This document shows positions 4,799-53,683 of a DNA stretch of 58,297 bases, in pieces (positions within the stretch are counted from its first letter, which is position 1; each line of letters starts with the position of its first letter). Under the pieces are notes generated by a model. It saw only the letters and a program-made list of their open reading frames with translations. It did not search any database and was not told where the DNA came from. Source of the stretch: Megasphaera micronuciformis F0359 (GTDB taxonomy: Bacteria > Bacillota > Negativicutes > Veillonellales > Megasphaeraceae); assembly GCF_000165735.1 (NCBI RefSeq), contig NZ_GL538181.1, forward strand, positions 1 to 58,297. Direction: 5' to 3'. A program made the translations under genes and the position numbers.

Positions 4799-4820
4799 TC
4801 TATATATGGATGGTGATAAT

Positions 4821-5201
4821 ATGACTCTAGGTAGCCAATTAAGGCAATGCCGTCAAAATAGAGATTTATCTATGGATAGCCTTGTAAATGAATTTAATCG
4901 CCTGTATGGGCTAAAGACAACGAAAAGCATGATATCTAGATGGGAGAATGATTTATCAACCCCTACGAATGCCTATTTATCAGCATATGCTAAATACTTT
5001 AATCTCGATTTAAATGAATTGCTGGGAATTAATCCTCCAACGGGCTATTACAACGACCCGGAGGTAGCGGAGCTGGCGGAGGAGCTGCGGACAAACCCCG
5101 ATTACCGCATCCTGTTCGACGCCAGTAAGAATTTAACGAAAGAAGATATTGACACCGTTTTAAAGATTATAGAGGGCCTAAAAGCCCGTGAGGGAAAATA
5201 A
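4821..5201 (+). CDS. cI-like XRE repressor
   Basis: A 126-residue regulator. Residues 1-70 form an XRE helix-turn-helix domain (GSQLRQCRQNRDLSMDSL ... SRWENDLSTPT ... FNLDLNELLGI). The C-terminal tail (ELAEELRTNPDYRILFDAS, KEDIDTVLKIIEGLK) is typical of short Firmicute phage repressors without a LexA-like peptidase. I take ATG 4821 because GGTGAT lies within the short leader; ATG 4806 in the same frame is the alternative. It is the likely ligand of the TGTTCC-N6-GGAACA operators. The PBECR gene follows two bases after its stop. Confidence 0.8.
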   Translation: MTLGSQLRQCRQNRDLSMDSLVNEFNRLYGLKTTKSMISRWENDLSTPTNAYLSAYAKYFNLDLNELLGINPPTGYYNDPEVAELAEELRTNPDYRILFDASKNLTKEDIDTVLKIIEGLKAREGK

Positions 5202-5203
5202 TT

Positions 5204-5569
5204 ATGGCAAGACAAATTGCGGTCATTACAAAGAAAGTCATTACGCTACTTTCTCTATCTTGCCCTATTAATACGCCCATATACATCGGACCATCAAATG
5301 AAGCTCATATGAAATCAAGCCATCCGAGAGATTTTGCTAATTATTATCCACATATAGGCCTTATTTTATCTCAGCCGGACTATGTCGGCGTTAATCACAA
5401 GGATGCGTCTATTGAGTACGTCCGCGAATTTAAAGCAAATAATGACTATGTAAAAGTAGCAGTAAGAATTGCTGCTAACAATTATTTCGTACGATCGTTA
5501 TATGTGCTGAACCCTAATCGAGTTGCGAATTTTATTAATAAAGGAACTCTTAAAAAATTTGACGAATAA
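5204..5569 (+). CDS. PBECR-type (barnase/EndoU/colicin E5/RelE-fold) nuclease domain protein
   Basis: A 121-residue protein. IYIGPSNEAHMKSSHPRDF, a YVREF strand, KVAVRIA and the late RSLYVLN stretch are the landmarks of the phage PBECR nuclease-fold families. His35, His40 and the Arg-Ser near residue 98 are candidate catalytic residues. It is translationally close to the repressor (two-base gap, GAGGGA ahead). A strong promoter for a structured RNA begins inside its last codons. By family it could be an RNA-cleaving toxin or effector; activity is inferred, not shown. Confidence 0.6.
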   Translation: MARQIAVITKKVITLLSLSCPINTPIYIGPSNEAHMKSSHPRDFANYYPHIGLILSQPDYVGVNHKDASIEYVREFKANNDYVKVAVRIAANNYFVRSLYVLNPNRVANFINKGTLKKFDE

Positions 5570-5593: not shown

Positions 5594-5733
5594 AAGAAAT
5601 ACTTGAGAATCTGAGGACGGAACGGGCAGCCGTCGCCAGAAGGTCATCGACCTGAATAGGAGATGCGGGAATGTCACCCCGCCAATTCTCAAACCTCGAG
5701 AGGGCTACAGTAATATGTAGCCCTCTTTCTTTT
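5594..5733 (+). ncRNA. structured ~140-nt RNA with own promoter and terminator
   Basis: A closing stem TTGAGAAT/ATTCTCAA (5603-5610 with 5685-5692) encloses three hairpins: GACGG/CCGTC (5616-5620, 5630-5634), AGGTC/GACCT with a 3-nt loop (5641-5645, 5649-5653) and GCGGG/CCCGC (5665-5669, 5678-5682). A perfect 10-bp terminator stem (5699-5708 with 5717-5726) and TTTCTTTT follow. No reading frame with a ribosome site is present. The ImmA-like gene starts 20 bases after the terminator. It might be a C4-like antisense RNA, an RNA antitoxin for the adjacent nuclease, or a leader attenuator; I cannot assign a family. Confidence 0.7.
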
Positions 5734-6163: not shown

Positions 6164-6451
6164 ATGTACAAAAAATATAGAGTTATTGCAATGCAAGATG
6201 AACACACGGTGCTGATTGATTATGGACTAACAAACGGGGCTCGCATTGGGGGCACTTTGTATATTATAAAGCCCCATAAGGACATAGCACTTAACGGCAA
6301 AGATAACGGATCGTGTGATGAAATAAAGGCGATTATTGAAGTAGTTGCTCCTTATGAAAATTTCTCGGTATGCAGGCATATAGCGCATAAAAACATTGAT
6401 ACAATTAGCACCGTTTCCGCCGGAGATGTCGTTATTCTAACTCGCGAATAG
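6164..6451 (+). CDS. conserved hypothetical protein (beta-barrel-like)
   Basis: A 95-residue protein. The pattern YRVIAMQDEHTVLIDYGLTNGARIGGTLYIIKP, then IKAIIEVVAPYENFSVC is that of a widespread small Firmicute protein with a VLINYGxxxGAxxGDxLxI core and a later Ser-Cys position, resembling a FlgT-C-like barrel. Function unknown. AGGAG lies eight bases upstream of the ATG. The PHK-DIALNGKDNG loop corresponds to the usual DPxTGxxLG segment. Confidence 0.6.
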   Translation: MYKKYRVIAMQDEHTVLIDYGLTNGARIGGTLYIIKPHKDIALNGKDNGSCDEIKAIIEVVAPYENFSVCRHIAHKNIDTISTVSAGDVVILTRE

Positions 6452-6925: not shown

Positions 6926-6973
6926 AGTAAGGTGCTAAACATACTGGACTTTCGATACCTTTACGGAGGCTTC

Positions 6974-7963
6974 ATGGATAACATTATTATATATAATACA
7001 GAGGACGGCCAGACTAATGTCCGCCTATATGCAAAAGATGGCACGGTCTGGATGACACAAGCACAAATGGCCGAACTTTTCCAAAAAAATACATCTACTA
7101 TTTCTCGCCATCTTAGTTCAGTTTTTGATGAGCGCGAACTTGATGAAAAAAGCAATTTGCGTTTTATGCAAATTGCTAATTCAGACAAACCCGTCTCATT
7201 TTATAGTTTGTCTGCTATTCTCGCAGTAGGATTCCGAGTACGCTCTCCCCGTGGAACTCAGTTCCGTCGTTGGGCAAATACAACGTTAAAAGAATATATG
7301 CAAAAAGGTTTCGTCATTGACGATGATCGTTTAAAAAATCCGGATGGACGCCCTGACTATTTCGATGAATTATTAGAACGTATCCGCGATATCCGTGCTA
7401 GTGAAAAAAGATTTTATCAAAAATTACGAGATCTCTTTTCTCTTTCGTCTGACTATGACAAAACTGATAAAACAACCCTTCAATTCTTTGCTGAAACTCA
7501 AAATAAGCTCATCTACGGAGTTACAGGAAAAACAGCTGCGGATTTAATTATGGACCGAGCCGATTCACAAAAGCCCAATATGGCACTAACATCATGGAGT
7601 GGTACTATTGTCCACAAAAAAGATATTCTTATTGCTAAAAACTATCTTTCAAAAGATGAAATCGATTCGTTAAACCGTCTTGTAACTATCTTTTTAGAAA
7701 GTGCCGAATTGCGAGTTAAAATGCGTAAAGATTTGACGCTTGTTTATTGGCGTGAAATTGTAGACAAGTTATTAACCGATCACGATATTCCGCTTCTCTC
7801 TCATCACGGGCATCATTCTCAGGAAGAAATGCGGCAGCATGTCAATACTGTTTACCAAACATTCGATGCAAGAAGAAAGCAAGAGGAAGCTCAGAAAGCA
7901 GATATTGACGATTTGAAAGAATTAGAAGACACCATCCCATCAATCCAGTCGCGGAAGAAATAA
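6974..7963 (+). CDS. rhuM: RhuM-family virulence/accessory protein
   Basis: A 329-residue protein. The N-terminal WMTQAQMAELFQKNTSTISRH region (about 20-40) is the conserved helix-turn-helix-like start of RhuM proteins. FRVRSPRGTQFRRWA and LKEYMQKGFVIDDDRLK follow, and the distal YWREIVDKLLTDHDIPLL is also typical. RhuM was named in a Salmonella pathogenicity island, is common on mobile elements, and its biochemical role is unknown. ATG 6974 has GGAGG four bases upstream; a longer frame from 6932 has none. Full length for the family. Confidence 0.85.
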   Translation: MDNIIIYNTEDGQTNVRLYAKDGTVWMTQAQMAELFQKNTSTISRHLSSVFDERELDEKSNLRFMQIANSDKPVSFYSLSAILAVGFRVRSPRGTQFRRWANTTLKEYMQKGFVIDDDRLKNPDGRPDYFDELLERIRDIRASEKRFYQKLRDLFSLSSDYDKTDKTTLQFFAETQNKLIYGVTGKTAADLIMDRADSQKPNMALTSWSGTIVHKKDILIAKNYLSKDEIDSLNRLVTIFLESAELRVKMRKDLTLVYWREIVDKLLTDHDIPLLSHHGHHSQEEMRQHVNTVYQTFDARRKQEEAQKADIDDLKELEDTIPSIQSRKK

Positions 7964-8032: not shown

Positions 8033-8061
8033 TTGAACTTATTGCTTTTATAGGCTATACT
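8033..8061 (+). promoter_or_regulatory. strong promoter of the abi leader RNA
   Basis: TTGAAC (8033-8038) and TATACT (8056-8061) are separated by 17 bases. Transcription is expected near 8068, immediately before the hairpin pair that precedes the abi genes. Confidence 0.8.
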
Positions 8062-8067
8062 AGTAGT

Positions 8068-8150
8068 AGTGAACTGTCCCTTTCGCATTGCGCGGCTGGG
8101 ACACTGAGGTCCTTGCTACTGCCCGTCCACCAGCAAGGACCTCTTTTATT
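8068..8150 (+). ncRNA. ~83-nt structured RNA upstream of tandem abi genes
   Basis: Hairpin 1 pairs TGTCCC (8075-8080) with GGGACA (8098-8103) and holds an inner CGC-ATT-GCG hairpin. Hairpin 2 pairs GAGGTCCTTGCT (8106-8117) perfectly with AGCAAGGACCTC (8132-8143) around a 14-nt loop (ACTGCCCGTCCACC) and ends in TTTTATT, a rho-independent terminator. The loop GTCC could also pair with GGAC of hairpin 1. The abi ribosome site begins six bases later. AbiF systems are known to carry a conserved RNA antitoxin next to the HEPN toxin gene; this RNA is the candidate here. A transcription attenuator is the alternative. Confidence 0.7.
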
Positions 8151-8168: not shown

Positions 8169-9227
8169 TTGACTATTTATGATAAGCCTTTTAAAACGTA
8201 TAACGAACAAATTGAATTGCTCAAGAGCCGAGGATTAATTGTTGAAGATTACGGTTTTGCATACCATGCTCTAAGCACGCTCTCTTACTATGACTTAATA
8301 ACTCGATATCAGAGATATTTCATGCCTGACGGTAAAAAGTTTATTGATAATATAACAATAGAGCTACTATATAATTTTTCATTGTTTGATAGATCCGTCC
8401 AGGCGTTTATATTAAAGTATAGCTTGCTTATAGAAAATACCGTTAAAACAAAGTTATCCCATATAATGGCCAAAGACTTCGGAGTCAATGAGGCTTCATA
8501 TCTTTCTGCTTCTAAATATAGGGAATCATTCAAACTACCTAACAACGAATCGTTAAAATTTAGTTCACTCGCTTTTGAATGTAAAAAGGCTATAATAGAT
8601 CCTAAAATTGCACGCGATCCTACATTATATTATCACCGGAAGCATAATCATATTCCTCCGTGGATTCTATTAAAAAATTTATCATTTAACAATACTATTA
8701 GTCTGATTAAGCTGTTAAGAAACAAACAGCGAAATCGTATTATAAATGAATTAGTCCCTTTTCCTCAAGTGCGTCTACGGGATAAAACCAACTTTGTTTT
8801 CTGCTCTTTAGGGGCAATCAGGCTCTTTCATGACTTTGCGGCTTGCAATTTGGATTTTACTACTCTATATACCTATGAAATCAACCATCTTTCCCCTACT
8901 ATCCTATTTAAACTCCTAGATGATCAATATCTCATAAAATCAGAAAACAACAGAATACCTCTTACTGAAAAAGCTTTCTCAAGAGGACTTTATGGGGTAA
9001 TGCTTTCTATGCTGGTATATCTCAAAGGAAGTCATTTAGTAGGTGAGTTTATTACTGATTTCCTTTACCTTTTTAAAGATTTCAATGATAGTGACAGTGC
9101 GGATAAAAAACGGCTATTCAAATATTATTCAGATATAGCCAATATGCCGGCCGATACGCCTATGCGTTTACAAAGCTATTTATCACAGTACAAACAAGCA
9201 AACAACGATTCCCGGAGTTTCCGTTAA
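8169..9227 (+). CDS. Abi_2 (AbiD/AbiF) family protein, degenerate HEPN motif
   Basis: A 352-residue protein. It opens DKPFKTYNEQIELLKSRGLI, the typical Abi_2 start, then has LSYYDLITRYQRYF and, at about 163-180, the PPWILLKNLSFNNTIS segment typical of the family. Where the RNxxAH ribonuclease motif is expected (about 218-228) it reads IRLFHDFAACN, so the motif looks lost. About 100 extra residues follow. The TTG start at 8169 has AGGAG eight bases upstream; no ATG fits the frame. Its stop is 16 bases before the second abi start. It may be a non-catalytic partner of the next protein. Confidence 0.7.
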   Translation: MTIYDKPFKTYNEQIELLKSRGLIVEDYGFAYHALSTLSYYDLITRYQRYFMPDGKKFIDNITIELLYNFSLFDRSVQAFILKYSLLIENTVKTKLSHIMAKDFGVNEASYLSASKYRESFKLPNNESLKFSSLAFECKKAIIDPKIARDPTLYYHRKHNHIPPWILLKNLSFNNTISLIKLLRNKQRNRIINELVPFPQVRLRDKTNFVFCSLGAIRLFHDFAACNLDFTTLYTYEINHLSPTILFKLLDDQYLIKSENNRIPLTEKAFSRGLYGVMLSMLVYLKGSHLVGEFITDFLYLFKDFNDSDSADKKRLFKYYSDIANMPADTPMRLQSYLSQYKQANNDSRSFR

Positions 9228-9243
9228 AAAGGATTTGATTATT

Positions 9244-10197
9244 TTGTCGGATGATATATTTTTAACTCCCAAAGAACAAGTCCAATATTGCAAAGCAGAA
9301 GGCATCTGTTTTAACCGGATGTCAAAATCTGAAGCCGTAAAATATTTGGAAGTTAACCGCAACTATTTTAAACTACGGACTTTTCGTAATAACTATGTAA
9401 AAGATCCTCACCTTCTAAAATATACGAATTTAGATTTTGCCGACTTAGTCGATTTATCAAACATTGACAGCCAGCTGCGACGTATTTTACTGGAAATGGT
9501 GCTTAGCATTGAACACTTTTCAAAATTACATCTAATACGTATCGTTCAAAAATCAAAAGAAGATGGTTACGCTGTAGTGCGAGATTATATTAATCAACTA
9601 TCTCATGATAATCAAAGACGCTTATCTTCTGATCTGAAGAAAAACAGTCGGAGCCTATATTGCAAATCTTTGTTTGATAACTGTATCAAGAAAAATATCA
9701 CGACATGCCCCGTTTGGGTATTTGTAGAGATAATTTCATTAGGTCAATACCTTCATTTTTATGATTTCTGCCGTCAACGCTACTCACGCCAATCATATGC
9801 AAAAGAGCTTAAAGAAAGATTATATTTGCTATGGACAGTAAAAGACCTAAGAAATGCATGCGCTCACAACAACTGTATTATTAACGATTTTCGTGCCCCT
9901 ACCTCCGCTAAAACTATCCCCAGTCAATCAGTAAATAACGCATTAATAAACTTGGGAATTTCTACTCACGTGCGTCGAAAACATTTGCGAAGAATCCCTA
10001 CCCATCAAATTATTACAACCTTTTATACTCACACGCTAATCGTATCAAGCCCAGAAGAACATAATCACGTGGTAAATGAGCTCCAGAATTTCAAAAAACG
10101 ACTGTTCCTAAATAGTGATTATACGCATAATGACATTATTTACTCTAGCTTCAAGCTACTGGAGAAACTTATTGACAATTGGTTTATTATGATATAA
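9244..10197 (+). CDS. Abi_2 (AbiD/AbiF) family HEPN protein
   Basis: A 317-residue protein of the same family. It opens LTPKEQVQYCKAEGICF, has a CPVWVFVEIISLGQYLHFY segment at about 155-173 and an intact HEPN motif LRNACAHNN (Arg-Asn-x3-His, about 203-208), which in this fold is an RNA-cleaving site. TTG 9244 is preferred because AAAAAGGA ends ten bases upstream; TTG 9235 would have one base of spacing. It would act in the cytoplasm as the likely toxic or abortive-infection effector. A terminator at 10237-10270 closes the unit. Confidence 0.75.
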   Translation: MSDDIFLTPKEQVQYCKAEGICFNRMSKSEAVKYLEVNRNYFKLRTFRNNYVKDPHLLKYTNLDFADLVDLSNIDSQLRRILLEMVLSIEHFSKLHLIRIVQKSKEDGYAVVRDYINQLSHDNQRRLSSDLKKNSRSLYCKSLFDNCIKKNITTCPVWVFVEIISLGQYLHFYDFCRQRYSRQSYAKELKERLYLLWTVKDLRNACAHNNCIINDFRAPTSAKTIPSQSVNNALINLGISTHVRRKHLRRIPTHQIITTFYTHTLIVSSPEEHNHVVNELQNFKKRLFLNSDYTHNDIIYSSFKLLEKLIDNWFIMI

Positions 10198-10236
10198 GAT
10201 ACTGTTACAGAGAAAAAACATTAAATGTTTTTGCGA

Positions 10237-10270
10237 GAGCAGTATCAGTTGATATTGCTCTTATTTTTTT
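10237..10270 (+). terminator. terminator of the abi operon
   Basis: GAGCAGTATCA and TGATATTGCTC pair over 11 bp with one G-U, around a GT loop (10237-10260), followed by TTATTTTTTT. Another A/T hairpin (AAAAACATT / AATGTTTTT) lies just upstream at about 10215-10232. Confidence 0.75.
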
Positions 10271-10337
10271 GTCTTATAATAGGCAGTTATATTATCAATA
10301 TTCTATAAGTTTTTAGATATAGAAAGAGGTGTTCCCA

Positions 10338-10634: not shown

Positions 10635-11957
10635 ATGAACACTAACAAGCGAGCAGCCCTTTATATCCGTGTAAGTACAGAAGAGCAAGCCAGGCATGGA
10701 CTATCCCTAAGTGCACAATTAGAAAATTTGCAACAGTATGCAAAAAATAAAGGGTACGATATAGTCGGAATATATACTGATGATGGTGCTTCCGCTCGTA
10801 AATCCCCTTTTTCTCGTAAGGCCTTTAAGCAGCTGATGGAAGATGTACAATGGAATCGAATTGACCGCATATTATTTATTAAGTTGGATAGATGGTTTCG
10901 TTCGGTCCGTGATTACTATAAAGCCCAAGATATACTGGATGCTCATGGTGTGGACTGGGAAACTACACAAGAGCAATACAATACCACGACTACAAACGGA
11001 CGCCTAATGTTAAACATCAAATTATCTGTCGCCCAAAATGAATCTGATATGACAAGTGATAGAATTCGTTTTGTATTTGAACAAAAACGGGTAAAGCATG
11101 AAGTTCTATCCGGCTTTGCACCTCTGGGTTATAAAATAGAAAATAAACATTTAGTTCCTGATAAGAATGCATCTATAATAGCCAATGCATTTAATCAATT
11201 CATTGCATACCCCAATTTACAACAATTAACCAATTGGTTTCATTCCCAGGGAATTCATTATAATGTAACTTCAATCCGTAAATTATTAAGAAATGAACGA
11301 TATATTGGCCATAATAAGGGTGACTTGGAGTATTGTCCTCCCATCGTATCTGAGCAACAATTCTATACCGTCCAAGATATACTTGACAAGAATTTAACAG
11401 TAAAGAGAACCGCAAGCGGATTAGTATATCTCTTTACCGGTTTATTACGCTGTCCTATTTGCGGCCATAAACTCACCAGTTCATGTGCCTATTCCGGTAC
11501 ACATAAATATAAGCGTTACCGCTGTTCCAGACATTGGCGTAACGAAGACTGCTCCTTTAATCGCGGTATTGCGGAAAGCAAACTTGAAAAACAATTATTA
11601 ACACATTTTGATGATTTGTACGAGCACTTCAATTCCGCTGTACAAGAAGAGCAAAAAAATAACACTCGCATAGATACGCAAGTGATTAAGAAAAAGCAAG
11701 AACGGCTAAAAGAGTTATTTTTAAATGAGCTTATTACTCTAGATGAATATAAAAAAGATTATGCTAAGTATGCTGCCATGTTACCGTCTGAGCCCAGGCC
11801 TTCTATTCAACCTTCACTATATAAGGGTATGAAGGCAGCTGACATAGAACAGCTATATAAGACTCTTCCGGATCGACAAAAGCAAGCCTTCTTACGACAA
11901 ATTATTGACTATATAGACTTTGACGCTGATTTAAAGCCTATTATACATTTTAAATAG
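10635..11957 (+). CDS. large serine recombinase (integrase)
   Basis: A 440-residue site-specific recombinase. The resolvase domain starts ALYIRVSTEEQ with the catalytic Ser near residue 14, and has DRILFIKLDRWFRS, the usual acidic and arginine positions. The recombinase domain follows (FAPLGYKI, IRKLLRNERYIG), then a zinc ribbon with CPICG (about 275) and a later Cys pair (CSRHW, CSF), and a coiled-coil C-terminus. GGAGG lies seven bases upstream. Its stop is within the splice point of the dehydrogenase gene, as for integrases next to their attachment site. It integrates and, with a directionality factor not seen here, excises the element. Confidence 0.95.
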   Translation: MNTNKRAALYIRVSTEEQARHGLSLSAQLENLQQYAKNKGYDIVGIYTDDGASARKSPFSRKAFKQLMEDVQWNRIDRILFIKLDRWFRSVRDYYKAQDILDAHGVDWETTQEQYNTTTTNGRLMLNIKLSVAQNESDMTSDRIRFVFEQKRVKHEVLSGFAPLGYKIENKHLVPDKNASIIANAFNQFIAYPNLQQLTNWFHSQGIHYNVTSIRKLLRNERYIGHNKGDLEYCPPIVSEQQFYTVQDILDKNLTVKRTASGLVYLFTGLLRCPICGHKLTSSCAYSGTHKYKRYRCSRHWRNEDCSFNRGIAESKLEKQLLTHFDDLYEHFNSAVQEEQKNNTRIDTQVIKKKQERLKELFLNELITLDEYKKDYAKYAAMLPSEPRPSIQPSLYKGMKAADIEQLYKTLPDRQKQAFLRQIIDYIDFDADLKPIIHFK

Positions 11958-11990
11958 CTTGTACTATAGGCAACACTTCTAAAGGTAAGG
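11945..11990. other. element-chromosome junction (attachment site)
   Basis: The recombinase stop codon (11955-11957) overlaps the last codons of the truncated dehydrogenase, read on the other strand as ...LEVLPIVQAI. The family normally continues from this position into an active-site region, so the crossover lies within these few bases. The partner site is outside the window, so the core dinucleotide cannot be named. Confidence 0.6.
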
Positions 11991-12495
11991 CTTGTAAGAG
12001 CTCCGGTACGAGTACGGCCCTATCGGCATATAAAGCCTCATGAGCCAAGCCTTTTTTCACCTGCCGCGTAACCAGCGATACAACCGCCACATTGGTCACT
12101 TCACTGCCCGTGCCGCACGTTGAAGGCACCAGAATGAGCTCACTGCCCTTACAAGGCTGTACCGTCCCGTCAAAGAGCTCTGTCAAGGGTATACATTCTT
12201 TCAGGGACAGAAATTTGGCCACATCCAAGATGGCTCCGCCTCCGACAGCTATAATCCGCTGCGGATGTTCTATCATGTCACGGCGAATCGCTTCCACTAC
12301 CTCATCTGTCGGTTCCCCGTCATCATAATCATCCTTTAAGAGAACTTGACACGGTAAATCGAGATTCTCAAAATAAGAACCGTAGATATACCGGTTTGTC
12401 AATAATACGTCATCTTCCCTTACCTTCAAGTCAGCCGCCATGGCACAACATGTGTCATATCGATAAACGGCGGTGTGTAATCCCAGTTCCAGCAT
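11950..12495 (-). pseudogene. iron-containing alcohol dehydrogenase (4-hydroxybutyrate dehydrogenase-like), split by element
   Basis: Only the N-terminal 181 residues of a protein that is about 370 long in the family remain. The NAD-binding landmark GGGAILDVAKFLSL (near 100) and VPSTCGTGSEVTN (near 135) are intact, but the metal-binding histidines of the C-terminal half are missing. AAGGAGG lies before the ATG. The break is at the recombinase gene, so insertion of the element disrupted it; the other half should be at the far end of the element. It is therefore inactive in the lysogen and restored on exact excision. Confidence 0.8.
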
Positions 12496-52805: not shown

Positions 52806-52837
52806 AACAAAAAAAGACGGTAACCGAAGTTACCGTC
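52806..52837 (-). terminator. terminator after the cold-shock gene
   Basis: GACGGTAAC and GTTACCGTC form a 9-bp stem with a TTCG loop on the minus strand, followed by T7. Confidence 0.8.
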
Positions 52838-52857
52838 ATAAAGGTCGTTACCGTAGT

Positions 52858-53055
52858 TTACGCTTTTGTTACGTTAGCTGCCTGAGGGCCACGAGCGCCG
52901 TCTACGATATCGAATTCAACTTCTTGACCTTCAGTCAAAGACTTGAAGCCGTCTTCCTGAATGGCAGAGAAGTGAACGAATACGTCGCCGCCGTCTTCTC
53001 TTTCAATGAAGCCATAACCTTTTTCTGCACTAAACCATTTTACTTTACCTTGCAT
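52858..53055 (-). CDS. csp: cold-shock protein
   Basis: A 65-residue single-domain RNA-binding protein. RNP1 [11 protein letters not shown] and RNP2 VFVHFSAI are intact. It works as an RNA chaperone. The leader is about 47 bases from the predicted start point, with an AGGAGG ribosome site, shorter than in E. coli cspA. Confidence 0.95.
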
Positions 53056-53108
53056 GACACAATCCTCCTAAGATAAAAACTTCCAGCTATCTTGCTAGCT
53101 ATGGCCTA

Positions 53109-53137
53109 AGTGTAACATAGTTATAATCCAGTGTCAA
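53109..53137 (-). promoter_or_regulatory. cold-shock gene promoter
   Basis: Minus strand TTGACA (53132-53137) and TACACT (53109-53114) are 17 bases apart. An AGCTA/TAGCT repeat lies in the short leader. Confidence 0.75.
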
Positions 53138-53194
53138 CGAATATTTCCAATGTATGCATGTAATAAAAATTCGATAATCAATCTATTTATCGGC

Positions 53195-53683
53195 TTATTT
53201 TCGAACATAATCAATAAAGGAATATGCATATTTATTACTCAACGTTTTTTCAAAGTCATGCCTATCAGTCATAGCCCACTCATTTTTATTTTCTTGCGGG
53301 AAATAGGTATCGGCCGCGAATTCTTCATGAATTTCCGTAATGTACATTCGCTGTGCCAAGGGCAAAAAAGATTCGTAAACCGAAGCTCCTCCAATGACGA
53401 AATATTCCTTGTCCTCCACCAGAGAAGCACATACATCTTCTACAGAATGATATACATCGATACCGTCATGAGACTGTTTGTAGTCTTTCTGTGACGTAAT
53501 TACCATATGTCTGCGATTCGGCAAAAGCCCCGGCAAACTTTCAAACGTTTTGCGCCCCATGATTAAATCATGTCCTGTCGTCAAGGCCTTAAATCGTTTC
53601 AAGTCCGCTGAAATATGGCACAGTAAATCTCCGTCCTTACCGATGCCGCCGTTTTTATCTCGCGCTACAATCAAAGAAATCAT
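53195..53683 (-). CDS. folA: dihydrofolate reductase
   Basis: A 162-residue enzyme that reduces dihydrofolate made by Thy[22 protein letters not shown] holds the N-terminal active site, then [16 protein letters not shown] and [13 protein letters not shown]. Its ATG overlaps the thyA stop by four bases, so the two are co-translated. Confidence 0.94.

What the first reader, a model, noticed from the sequence alone, without database searches (positions are those of the whole stretch)
8169..9227. First Abi protein has lost the HEPN catalytic motif
At the place where the second protein has LRNACAHNN, the first reads IRLFHDFAACN. Arg-x4-His is not kept, while the PPWxLL segment before it is. This suggests one active and one inactive subunit, with the inactive one perhaps binding the RNA or controlling the active partner. 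Alignment was by eye.
Basis: partly seen in the sequence, partly recalled or inferred. Interest (0 to 1): 0.55.

Follow-up and report, generated by a model that had tools for sequence, protein, structure and literature searches.

The report
Disarmed phage-defence toxin beside live one
One of two neighbouring bacterial phage-defence toxin genes has lost the amino acids expected to cut RNA while the rest of the protein looks intact, which is rare and makes it a natural dead-toxin case worth testing, although such a dead/live pair was not seen again in the related genomes examined.

Summary
Abi1 (8169-9227) and Abi2 (9235-10197) are both AbiD/F (Pfam Abi_2) HEPN proteins. Of 174 distinct Abi_2 proteins gathered here that cover the motif, 173 keep R and H; Abi1 is the only exception. 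The rest of Abi1 looks maintained: no stop codons, 43 of 47 other conserved positions kept, no unusually long branch, PbAbiF-like model fold. The proposed recurring active/inactive pair is not supported: adjacent pairs are rare in the genomes searched, and in the two other pairs found both copies are intact. The locus reads as two RNA-toxin modules set head to tail: promoter, a diverged leader RNA with terminator, abi1, abi2, then a second small RNA whose -10 box starts at the abi2 stop codon. Both RNA families covary in relatives and neither matched Rfam. Most likely Abi2 is the effector and Abi1 a retained pseudo-enzyme, perhaps regulatory; that last step is inferred, and a functionless relic is the main rival.

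The parts
8033..8061 (+). sigma-A-type promoter of the leader RNA and abi operon: TTGAAC, 17-base spacer, TATACT
   Evidence: read by eye from the sequence; Abi1-type relatives show similar promoters at the same place, also by eye. Not tested experimentally.
8067..8149 (+). leader small RNA (sRNA1, likely but diverged): hairpin plus intrinsic-terminator hairpin ending in a T run, just before abi1
   Evidence: best match of model R1 (12 relatives, no window) in 10 kb around it: 22.4 bits, E 2.1e-4, filters off; model R3 (9 relatives): 21.5 bits. Missed by the default-filter search of the whole window. A probably spurious 23.0-bit match elsewhere (L069) shows the score alone is not decisive; position and promoter support it. 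14 of 19 pairs covary in relatives.
8169..9227 (+). abi1: AbiD/F (Abi_2) HEPN-fold protein, 352 aa, catalytic motif lost
   Evidence: Pfam PF07751, PADLOC AbiD, AF2 model pLDDT 88.0, VIA Z 20.9 over 288 residues to PbAbiF 8vz6
8829..8846 (+). codons of H221-D222-F-A-A-C226, at the place of catalytic R-N-x-x-x-H
9235..10197 (+). abi2: AbiD/F (Abi_2) HEPN protein, 320 aa, intact motif
   Evidence: Pfam PF07751, AF2 model pLDDT 90.2, VIA Z 15.9 over 282 residues to 8vz6
9850..9867 (+). codons of catalytic R206-N-A-C-A-H211 of Abi2
   Evidence: R206, N207 and H211 invariant in the 8 rows of the Abi2-type alignment
10172..10200 (+). promoter of sRNA2 inside the end of abi2: TTGACA, 17-base spacer, TAAGAT; the abi2 stop codon TAA is the first half of the -10 box
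   Evidence: exact TTGACA with a 17-base spacer at 16 of 18 homologous places; 2.6% of random 59-base stretches of the same loci score 9 or more
10195..10269 (+). small RNA downstream of abi2 (sRNA2; the match includes its -10 box): hairpin plus terminator hairpin and T run
   Evidence: model R2 from 7 relatives without the window: 82.4 bits, E 7.5e-16; 9 of 19 pairs covary in those relatives

Best explanation
The locus is two AbiD/F-type RNA-toxin modules of different subfamilies placed head to tail in one transcription direction: promoter - sRNA1 with terminator - abi1 - abi2 - sRNA2 with its own promoter. Abi2 is the working HEPN ribonuclease toxin, presumably held in check by an RNA antitoxin as in AbiFCd/RCd22. 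Abi1 is a pseudo-toxin: it keeps the AbiF fold but has lost R, N and H of the active site and should not cut RNA. It was not simply left to drift. It is most likely kept as a non-catalytic regulator, for example a partner or decoy that lowers Abi2 activity, or a protein acting on its own leader RNA that sets read-through into abi1-abi2. SHOWN here: motif loss, its rarity in the sample, predicted fold and conserved-site retention, the operon-like layout, a covarying downstream RNA with a matching promoter motif, and a weaker match to a covarying leader RNA. INFERRED: no catalysis by Abi1, toxicity of Abi2, antitoxin role of the RNAs, regulatory role of Abi1.
For: Motif: 1 of 174 distinct Abi_2 proteins lacks R and H; 14 of 15 Abi1-type proteins keep R221/N222/H226. 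R202/H207 mutants of AbiFCd lose toxicity and R210A+H215A PbAbiF is reported inactive (PMC12373285, passages). Retention: Abi1 breaks 7 of 50 conserved columns, 3 of them R/N/H; the 14 relatives break 0-10 of 49-54 and never R/N/H. Random drift gave all 3 motif changes, no stop and 4 or fewer other changes in 0 of 3000 runs at each of 6 divergence levels. End branch 1.2 against 0.72-1.20 from the same fork to the four sister tips. Model fold matches PbAbiF. Modules: 12 Abi1-type relatives share a covarying leader RNA, and 8 Abi2-type relatives (L034-L041) have the downstream RNA.
Against: No second genome with a dead/live pair was found, so no recurrence backs a joint function. sRNA1 is more diverged than the protein would suggest: a model built without them scores three held-out relatives at 52.9, 37.7 and 34.2 bits but the window at 21.5, although two of the three (L053, L069) have proteins no closer to the model's members; this fits relaxed need for that RNA. 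In AbiFCd, R202D+H207D weakened RNA binding. Identity of Abi1 to its sister clade falls from residues 1-60 (61% against 67% within the clade) to 291-352 (28% against 51%), which could mean partial decay. No strain-level data, so no direct test of selection; the drift simulation does not rule out selection for inactivation followed by recent neglect. Confidence was lowered from 0.60 to 0.55 after the held-out leader test.
Confidence: 0.55

Rival explanations
1. Abi1 is a relic: a disarmed toxin with no function of its own, kept only because its promoter, leader and translation feed the downstream abi2.
For: No recurring pair; leader RNA more diverged than in held-out relatives; weaker conservation of the second half of Abi1 than among its sisters; abi2 starts 7 bases after abi1, leaving no room for a promoter between them.
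Against: 352 open codons, 43 of 47 non-catalytic conserved positions kept, no unusually long branch; 0 of 3000 drift runs at each of 6 divergence levels reproduce this.
Confidence: 0.29
2. Abi1 is still an enzyme with altered chemistry, H221 and C226 (or the kept H159/H161) replacing Arg and His.
For: Potentially reactive residues stand at the two catalytic places, and H161 is kept by 14 of 14 relatives; the HEPN review notes alternative active-site residues in other HEPN families (PMC3710099, passages).
Against: No other of the 174 Abi_2 proteins has a changed pair, and mutants at the same sites in AbiFCd and PbAbiF are reported inactive.
Confidence: 0.07
3. One reading: a conserved heteromeric system of one active and one inactive subunit.
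For: Same-direction genes 7 bases apart with opposite motif states; AbiF proteins form dimers (PMC12373285, passages), and Cas13 is proposed to descend from fusion of two related HEPN genes (PMC12165695, passage).
Against: Close relatives of each gene mostly stand alone with intact motifs, and the two other adjacent pairs are both intact.
Confidence: 0.08

Closest known systems
AbiF-RCd22 of Clostridioides difficile phi027 (PMC12373285, abstract and passages seen)
   Same: Abi_2 HEPN protein; promoter, small RNA with intrinsic terminator, then the toxin gene by read-through, the layout of sRNA1-abi1; R/H needed for toxicity
   Different: Motif is RNQCAH in AbiFCd, lost in Abi1; RCd22 carries two Rfam abiF motifs, none found here; the abiFCd locus is described with one toxin gene, here there are two plus a downstream RNA with its own promoter motif
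PbAbiF dimer with ncRNA (PDB 8vz6; its paper not read)
   Same: Fold of both models (VIA Z 20.9 and 15.9); profile match over residues 9-294 with R210/H215 on the motif columns
   Different: 13-15% identity; Abi1 lacks the catalytic pair
MtlR and Swt1-type inactive HEPN domains (PMC3710099, passages seen)
   Same: HEPN folds that lost the motif and are proposed there to act as RNA-binding or RNA-sensing domains
   Different: Other HEPN families; that review marks the motif of Abi2/AbiF/AbiD as conserved ('Yes')
CRISPR-Cas13 HEPN pair
   Same: Two related AbiD/F-like HEPN units; Cas13 chains are the next structural matches (Z 6.3-8.5)
   Different: Fused in one chain and guided by crRNA; here separate genes and one motif lost (that both Cas13 domains keep the motif is recalled)

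Membership tests
AbiD/F (Pfam Abi_2 PF07751) | sequence match above the curated cut-off | tested here: met
   77.1 and 81.8 bits against a cut-off of 25.6
AbiD/F (Pfam Abi_2 PF07751) | AbiF-type HEPN fold | tested here: met
   AF2 models match 8vz6
Active HEPN ribonuclease: Abi1 | R-phi-x3-H catalytic motif | tested here: not met
   H221-D-F-A-A-C226
Active HEPN ribonuclease: Abi2 | R-phi-x3-H catalytic motif | tested here: met
   R206-N-A-C-A-H211
AbiF-ncRNA (type III-like toxin-antitoxin) module | adjacent structured small RNA with promoter and terminator: Abi2 with sRNA2 | tested here: met
   transcription itself not tested
AbiF-ncRNA (type III-like toxin-antitoxin) module | adjacent structured small RNA with promoter and terminator: Abi1 with sRNA1 | tested here: inconclusive
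   layout present, but only 21.5-22.4 bits, close to a probably spurious 23.0-bit match in L069
AbiF-ncRNA (type III-like toxin-antitoxin) module | RNA binds and neutralises the toxin | not testable with these tools
   needs binding and toxicity assays
Rfam abiF RNA RF03085 | match to the RF03085 covariance model | tested here: not met
   no RF03085 match in the window; no gathering-level match in 25 loci of relatives
Recurring active/inactive HEPN pair | conserved co-occurrence of one intact and one broken copy | tested here: not met
   only the window; two other adjacent pairs intact in both copies

The most novel reading that the evidence does not exclude
A disarmed AbiF toxin has been recruited as a protein regulator of a second, active AbiF: mixed Abi1-Abi2 dimers, or Abi1 competing for RNA, would give a protein antitoxin on top of RNA antitoxins. 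This would be a stage in how two AbiD/F genes become one asymmetric HEPN pair, the route proposed for Cas13.
Probability: 0.15. Interest if true: 0.75.

Novelty: new variant of a known kind. Interest (0 to 1): 0.45.

Why it matters
AbiD/F toxins are proposed ancestors of Cas13, and the studied ones are restrained by small RNAs. A natural dead copy directly upstream of a live one, with the rest of the protein kept, makes it directly testable whether a HEPN toxin can be turned into a regulator of its neighbour. The two RNA families, one with its promoter built into the end of the toxin gene, give RNA-toxin pairs to test.

Tried and rejected
(1) Single-protein scans of viral contigs with Abi1 and Abi2 found no relatives; the alignment query found 45 loci. 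(2) Rfam abiF RNA: no match. The MIR169 and atoC rows were far below their gathering scores and were dismissed; the MIR169 row (10201-10287) overlies sRNA2. (3) First leader alignment A3 was dropped: the L072 coordinates were wrong and several leaders did not align; A4 (12 leaders) replaced it. (4) I first took L139 (58.8 bits with R1) for an independent leader; it is the same locus as training member L056, so it was discarded and a fair test was run with three leaders held out. (5) Model R1 did not find the leaders of the more distant relatives with filters off: of 9 sources only the training locus L139 was strong, and the other rows were 15.4 bits or less, so R1 describes a narrow leader family. 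In one search (44 sources, default filters) the other rows were 20.1 bits or less, and the window leader was not among them. (6) Model R2 also matched at unexpected places: L179 (upstream of the gene) and L047/L053 (one locus held twice, opposite strand). One of its shuffle controls was not beaten (further pair types, 125 of 500). (7) A frameshift origin of the motif loss was rejected because F220, A225, N227, L228 and F230 stay in register. (8) Terminator-like 5' leaders in 73 of 163 Abi_2 genes against 61 of 326 random stretches: suggestive, too crude to use. (9) No multimer prediction is offered, so an Abi1-Abi2 complex could not be modelled. Not examined for the motif: nine partial family matches without fetched DNA (G241, two of G092, G238, G139, G667, G466, one of G568, G035:C7), and 6 of 180 distinct hits that do not cover the motif. 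The two matches with highest identity over the first 62 residues (L013, 61%; L108, 60%) run off their contigs before the motif.

Full report
SETTING. The window is contig C7 of a 1.76-Mb genome in 37 contigs. Its best named matches for Abi1 include Anaeroglobus geminatus F0357 and Megasphaera sp. UBA1696. The two genes lie in a mobile-looking stretch with a RhuM gene upstream and a serine recombinase downstream.

OBSERVATION. abi1 (8169-9227, 352 aa) and abi2 (9235-10197, 320 aa) are both Pfam Abi_2 and PADLOC AbiD. The Pfam match of Abi1 ends at profile position 157 of 184, before the motif; that of Abi2 spans 5-184. In 15 Abi1-type proteins (A2) the columns R221, N222 and H226 are held by 14 rows, and the window reads H, D and C, while A225 and N227 are invariant. 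In 23 diverse Abi_2 proteins (A8) the same columns are at least 90% conserved and Abi1 again departs. A profile from A8 matches PbAbiF (8vz6, E 3e-55) over residues 9-294 and puts R210-N-x3-H215 on these columns.

HOW UNUSUAL. I pooled loci from the searches for relatives and from PF07751 searches of 398 phylum, 61 order and 380 class genomes (the class set includes the order set, and the phylum sample overlaps both). 255 open frames matched the iterated profile, 180 distinct by their last 200 residues. 6 did not cover the motif, 173 have R and H, and one, the window's Abi1, has neither. An earlier smaller pool gave 120 of 121. Caveats: nine partial family matches without fetched DNA were not examined, and profile searches can miss strongly degenerate members.

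IS ABI1 DECAYING? Against relatives, Abi1 breaks 7 of 50 conserved columns: R221H, N222D, H226C plus I25V, K48Q, F92V and K188R. The 14 relatives, each tested the same way, break 0 to 10 of 49-54, and none breaks R, N or H. The tree puts Abi1 in a clade of five with L050, L051, L052 and L068 (support 95/93), with an end branch of 1.2 against 0.72-1.20 from the same fork to the four other tips. In a simple drift simulation that starts from the present sequence, all three motif positions changed with no stop and at most 4 changes among the other 47 positions in 0 of 3000 runs at each of six divergence levels. So long neutral drift is unlikely; selection for inactivation, or constraint on the rest, is needed. 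Against this, identity to the sister clade falls along the protein (61% in residues 1-60 against 67% within the clade; 28% in 291-352 against 51%), so the second half may be less constrained.

STRUCTURE. AlphaFold2 models of Abi1 (15-row alignment, pLDDT 88.0, pTM 0.87) and Abi2 (8-row alignment, pLDDT 90.2, pTM 0.88) both match the PbAbiF dimer-ncRNA entry first: Abi1 by Foldseek E 5.9e-6 and VIA Z 20.9, rmsd 3.6, 288 aligned; Abi2 by VIA Z 15.9, rmsd 4.8, 282 aligned. The next rows are Cas13 chains with Z 6.3-8.5, a range the tool calls common.

NEIGHBOURS AND PAIRS. The seven closest Abi1-type genes of the order with DNA around the motif (L043-L049) and the nine Abi2-type loci examined (L034-L042) show no second Abi_2 gene within the 6-10 kb fetched, except L034 (G048); L046 starts only 224 bases from a contig end. 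In L034 an Abi1-like gene (intact RNDCAH) precedes an Abi2-type gene 62% identical to the window's. A further pair on viral contig L071 is intact in both copies. From the place tables, adjacent Abi_2 genes occur in 2 of the 84 class genomes with a match (G000, G048) and in 1 of 47 in the phylum sample (G000). PMC12373285 reports that other abi_2 copies are frequent at the -1 or +1 position across bacteria (passage), so pairs may be commoner elsewhere.

TWO RNA ELEMENTS. (a) Upstream of Abi1-type genes lie a promoter, a hairpin and a terminator hairpin. In 12 relatives 14 of 19 pairs show compensatory change, with 88.6% of cells paired against 36-59% for slid controls. The model from these 12 (R1) has its best match in 10 kb of the window at the leader, 8067-8149 (22.4 bits, E 2.1e-4, filters off); the default-filter search of the whole window missed it and listed only a chance-level site. 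In a held-out test, model R3 from 9 leaders scores three left-out relatives at 52.9 (L051), 37.7 (L053) and 34.2 bits (L069), each at its leader, but the window at 21.5. A second L069 match of 23.0 bits away from any leader shows what chance can reach. So sRNA1 is probably a member, and a more diverged one than its protein would suggest. The layout is that of RCd22-abiFCd (passages). (b) Downstream of Abi2-type genes lies another two-hairpin RNA. A model from 7 relatives without the window (R2; 9 of 19 pairs with compensatory change, 95.5% of cells paired against 49-52% for slid controls) finds window 10195-10269 at 82.4 bits, E 7.5e-16. Among 58 further loci it lists 10 matches in 9 distinct loci outside its training set (E 2.8e-6 to 0.065), 7 of them within 30 bases of the 3' end of the Abi_2 gene. 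At 16 of 18 places compared (7 of them training members) the model start coincides with a -10-like box preceded by exact TTGACA at 17 bases. In the Abi2-type genes the stop codon TAA forms the first half of that box (in L035 the gene stops earlier). Neither element has a gathering-level Rfam match.

MECHANISM. Established by others, seen here as abstract and passages: AbiFCd is toxic, RCd22 neutralises it by direct binding, R202/H207 mutants lose toxicity, and R202D+H207D also weakens RNA binding (PMC12373285). By analogy Abi2 should be the RNase toxin and sRNA2 its antitoxin, and Abi1 should be non-toxic. What Abi1 does is inferred: a mixed dimer or decoy that lowers Abi2 activity, or an RNA-binding regulator of its own leader. 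[quoted passage not shown] The relic reading is the main rival, and the diverged leader favours it.

LITERATURE. Full-text searches for AbiF with HEPN, ncRNA, Cas13, tandem copies, and the abiF RNA, and for HEPN with inactive, heterodimer and abortive infection, listed no title on a catalytically dead AbiF or a dead/live AbiF pair; only PMC12373285, PMC3710099 and PMC12165695 were opened, as passages. The library lacks most subscription papers. The PbAbiF study itself was not read; it is cited through PMC12373285 and the PDB entry title.

VERDICT. The motif loss is real and exceptional in this sample, the conserved active/inactive pair is not supported, and the locus is best read as two RNA-toxin modules in tandem with one toxin disarmed. 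Interest 0.45; a new variant of a known kind.

Noticed in passing
window 10172-10269 and homologous loci L034-L041: A small RNA family, without a gathering-level Rfam match in the window, directly after Abi2-type genes, with TTGACA-17-TAAGAT-type promoters built into the last codons; the stop codon is half of the -10 box.
   Followed up: yes
L047 4213-4345 (the same locus is held as L053): An R2-like RNA (35.9 bits) with its own TTGACA/TATAAT-like promoter lies beyond the 3' end of an Abi1-type gene on the opposite strand; in L179 a weaker R2-like match (25.5 bits) lies upstream of the Abi_2 gene instead.
   Followed up: partly
L035 3392-4417 (minus strand): An Abi2-type relative (58% identical) has an in-frame TGA that shortens it to 287 aa, yet its downstream RNA and promoter motif are present.
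   Followed up: no
window 6932-7963: RhuM-family gene (Pfam E 1.8e-101; PADLOC candidate defence PDC-S05, E 1.5e-138) just upstream of the abi genes.
   Followed up: no
window 4806-5569: HTH gene followed by a PBECR3-type nuclease gene (Pfam E 1.3e-23), which looks like a toxin-antitoxin or phage-type pair; a homologue of the nuclease (E 6.5e-80) lies near the Abi2-type gene of L037.
   Followed up: no
window 5606-5689: Rfam skipping-rope RNA (57.5 bits).
   Followed up: no
window 6164-6451 and L044 5734-6150: A small protein gene upstream of abi1 has a homologue directly upstream of the Abi1-type gene in L044 (E 3.5e-19); possible shared neighbour.
   Followed up: no
window 10635-12495: A serine recombinase gene overlaps tail to tail with a 181-aa frame that looks like the first part of an iron-type alcohol dehydrogenase (recalled, not searched); the element may have cut that gene.
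   Followed up: no
window 52810-53195, minus strand: cspA thermoregulator RNA match (101.6 bits).
   Followed up: no
genome contig G000:C12 65906-66487: A third Abi_2 gene of the same genome, with intact motif RNICAH (L131).
   Followed up: partly
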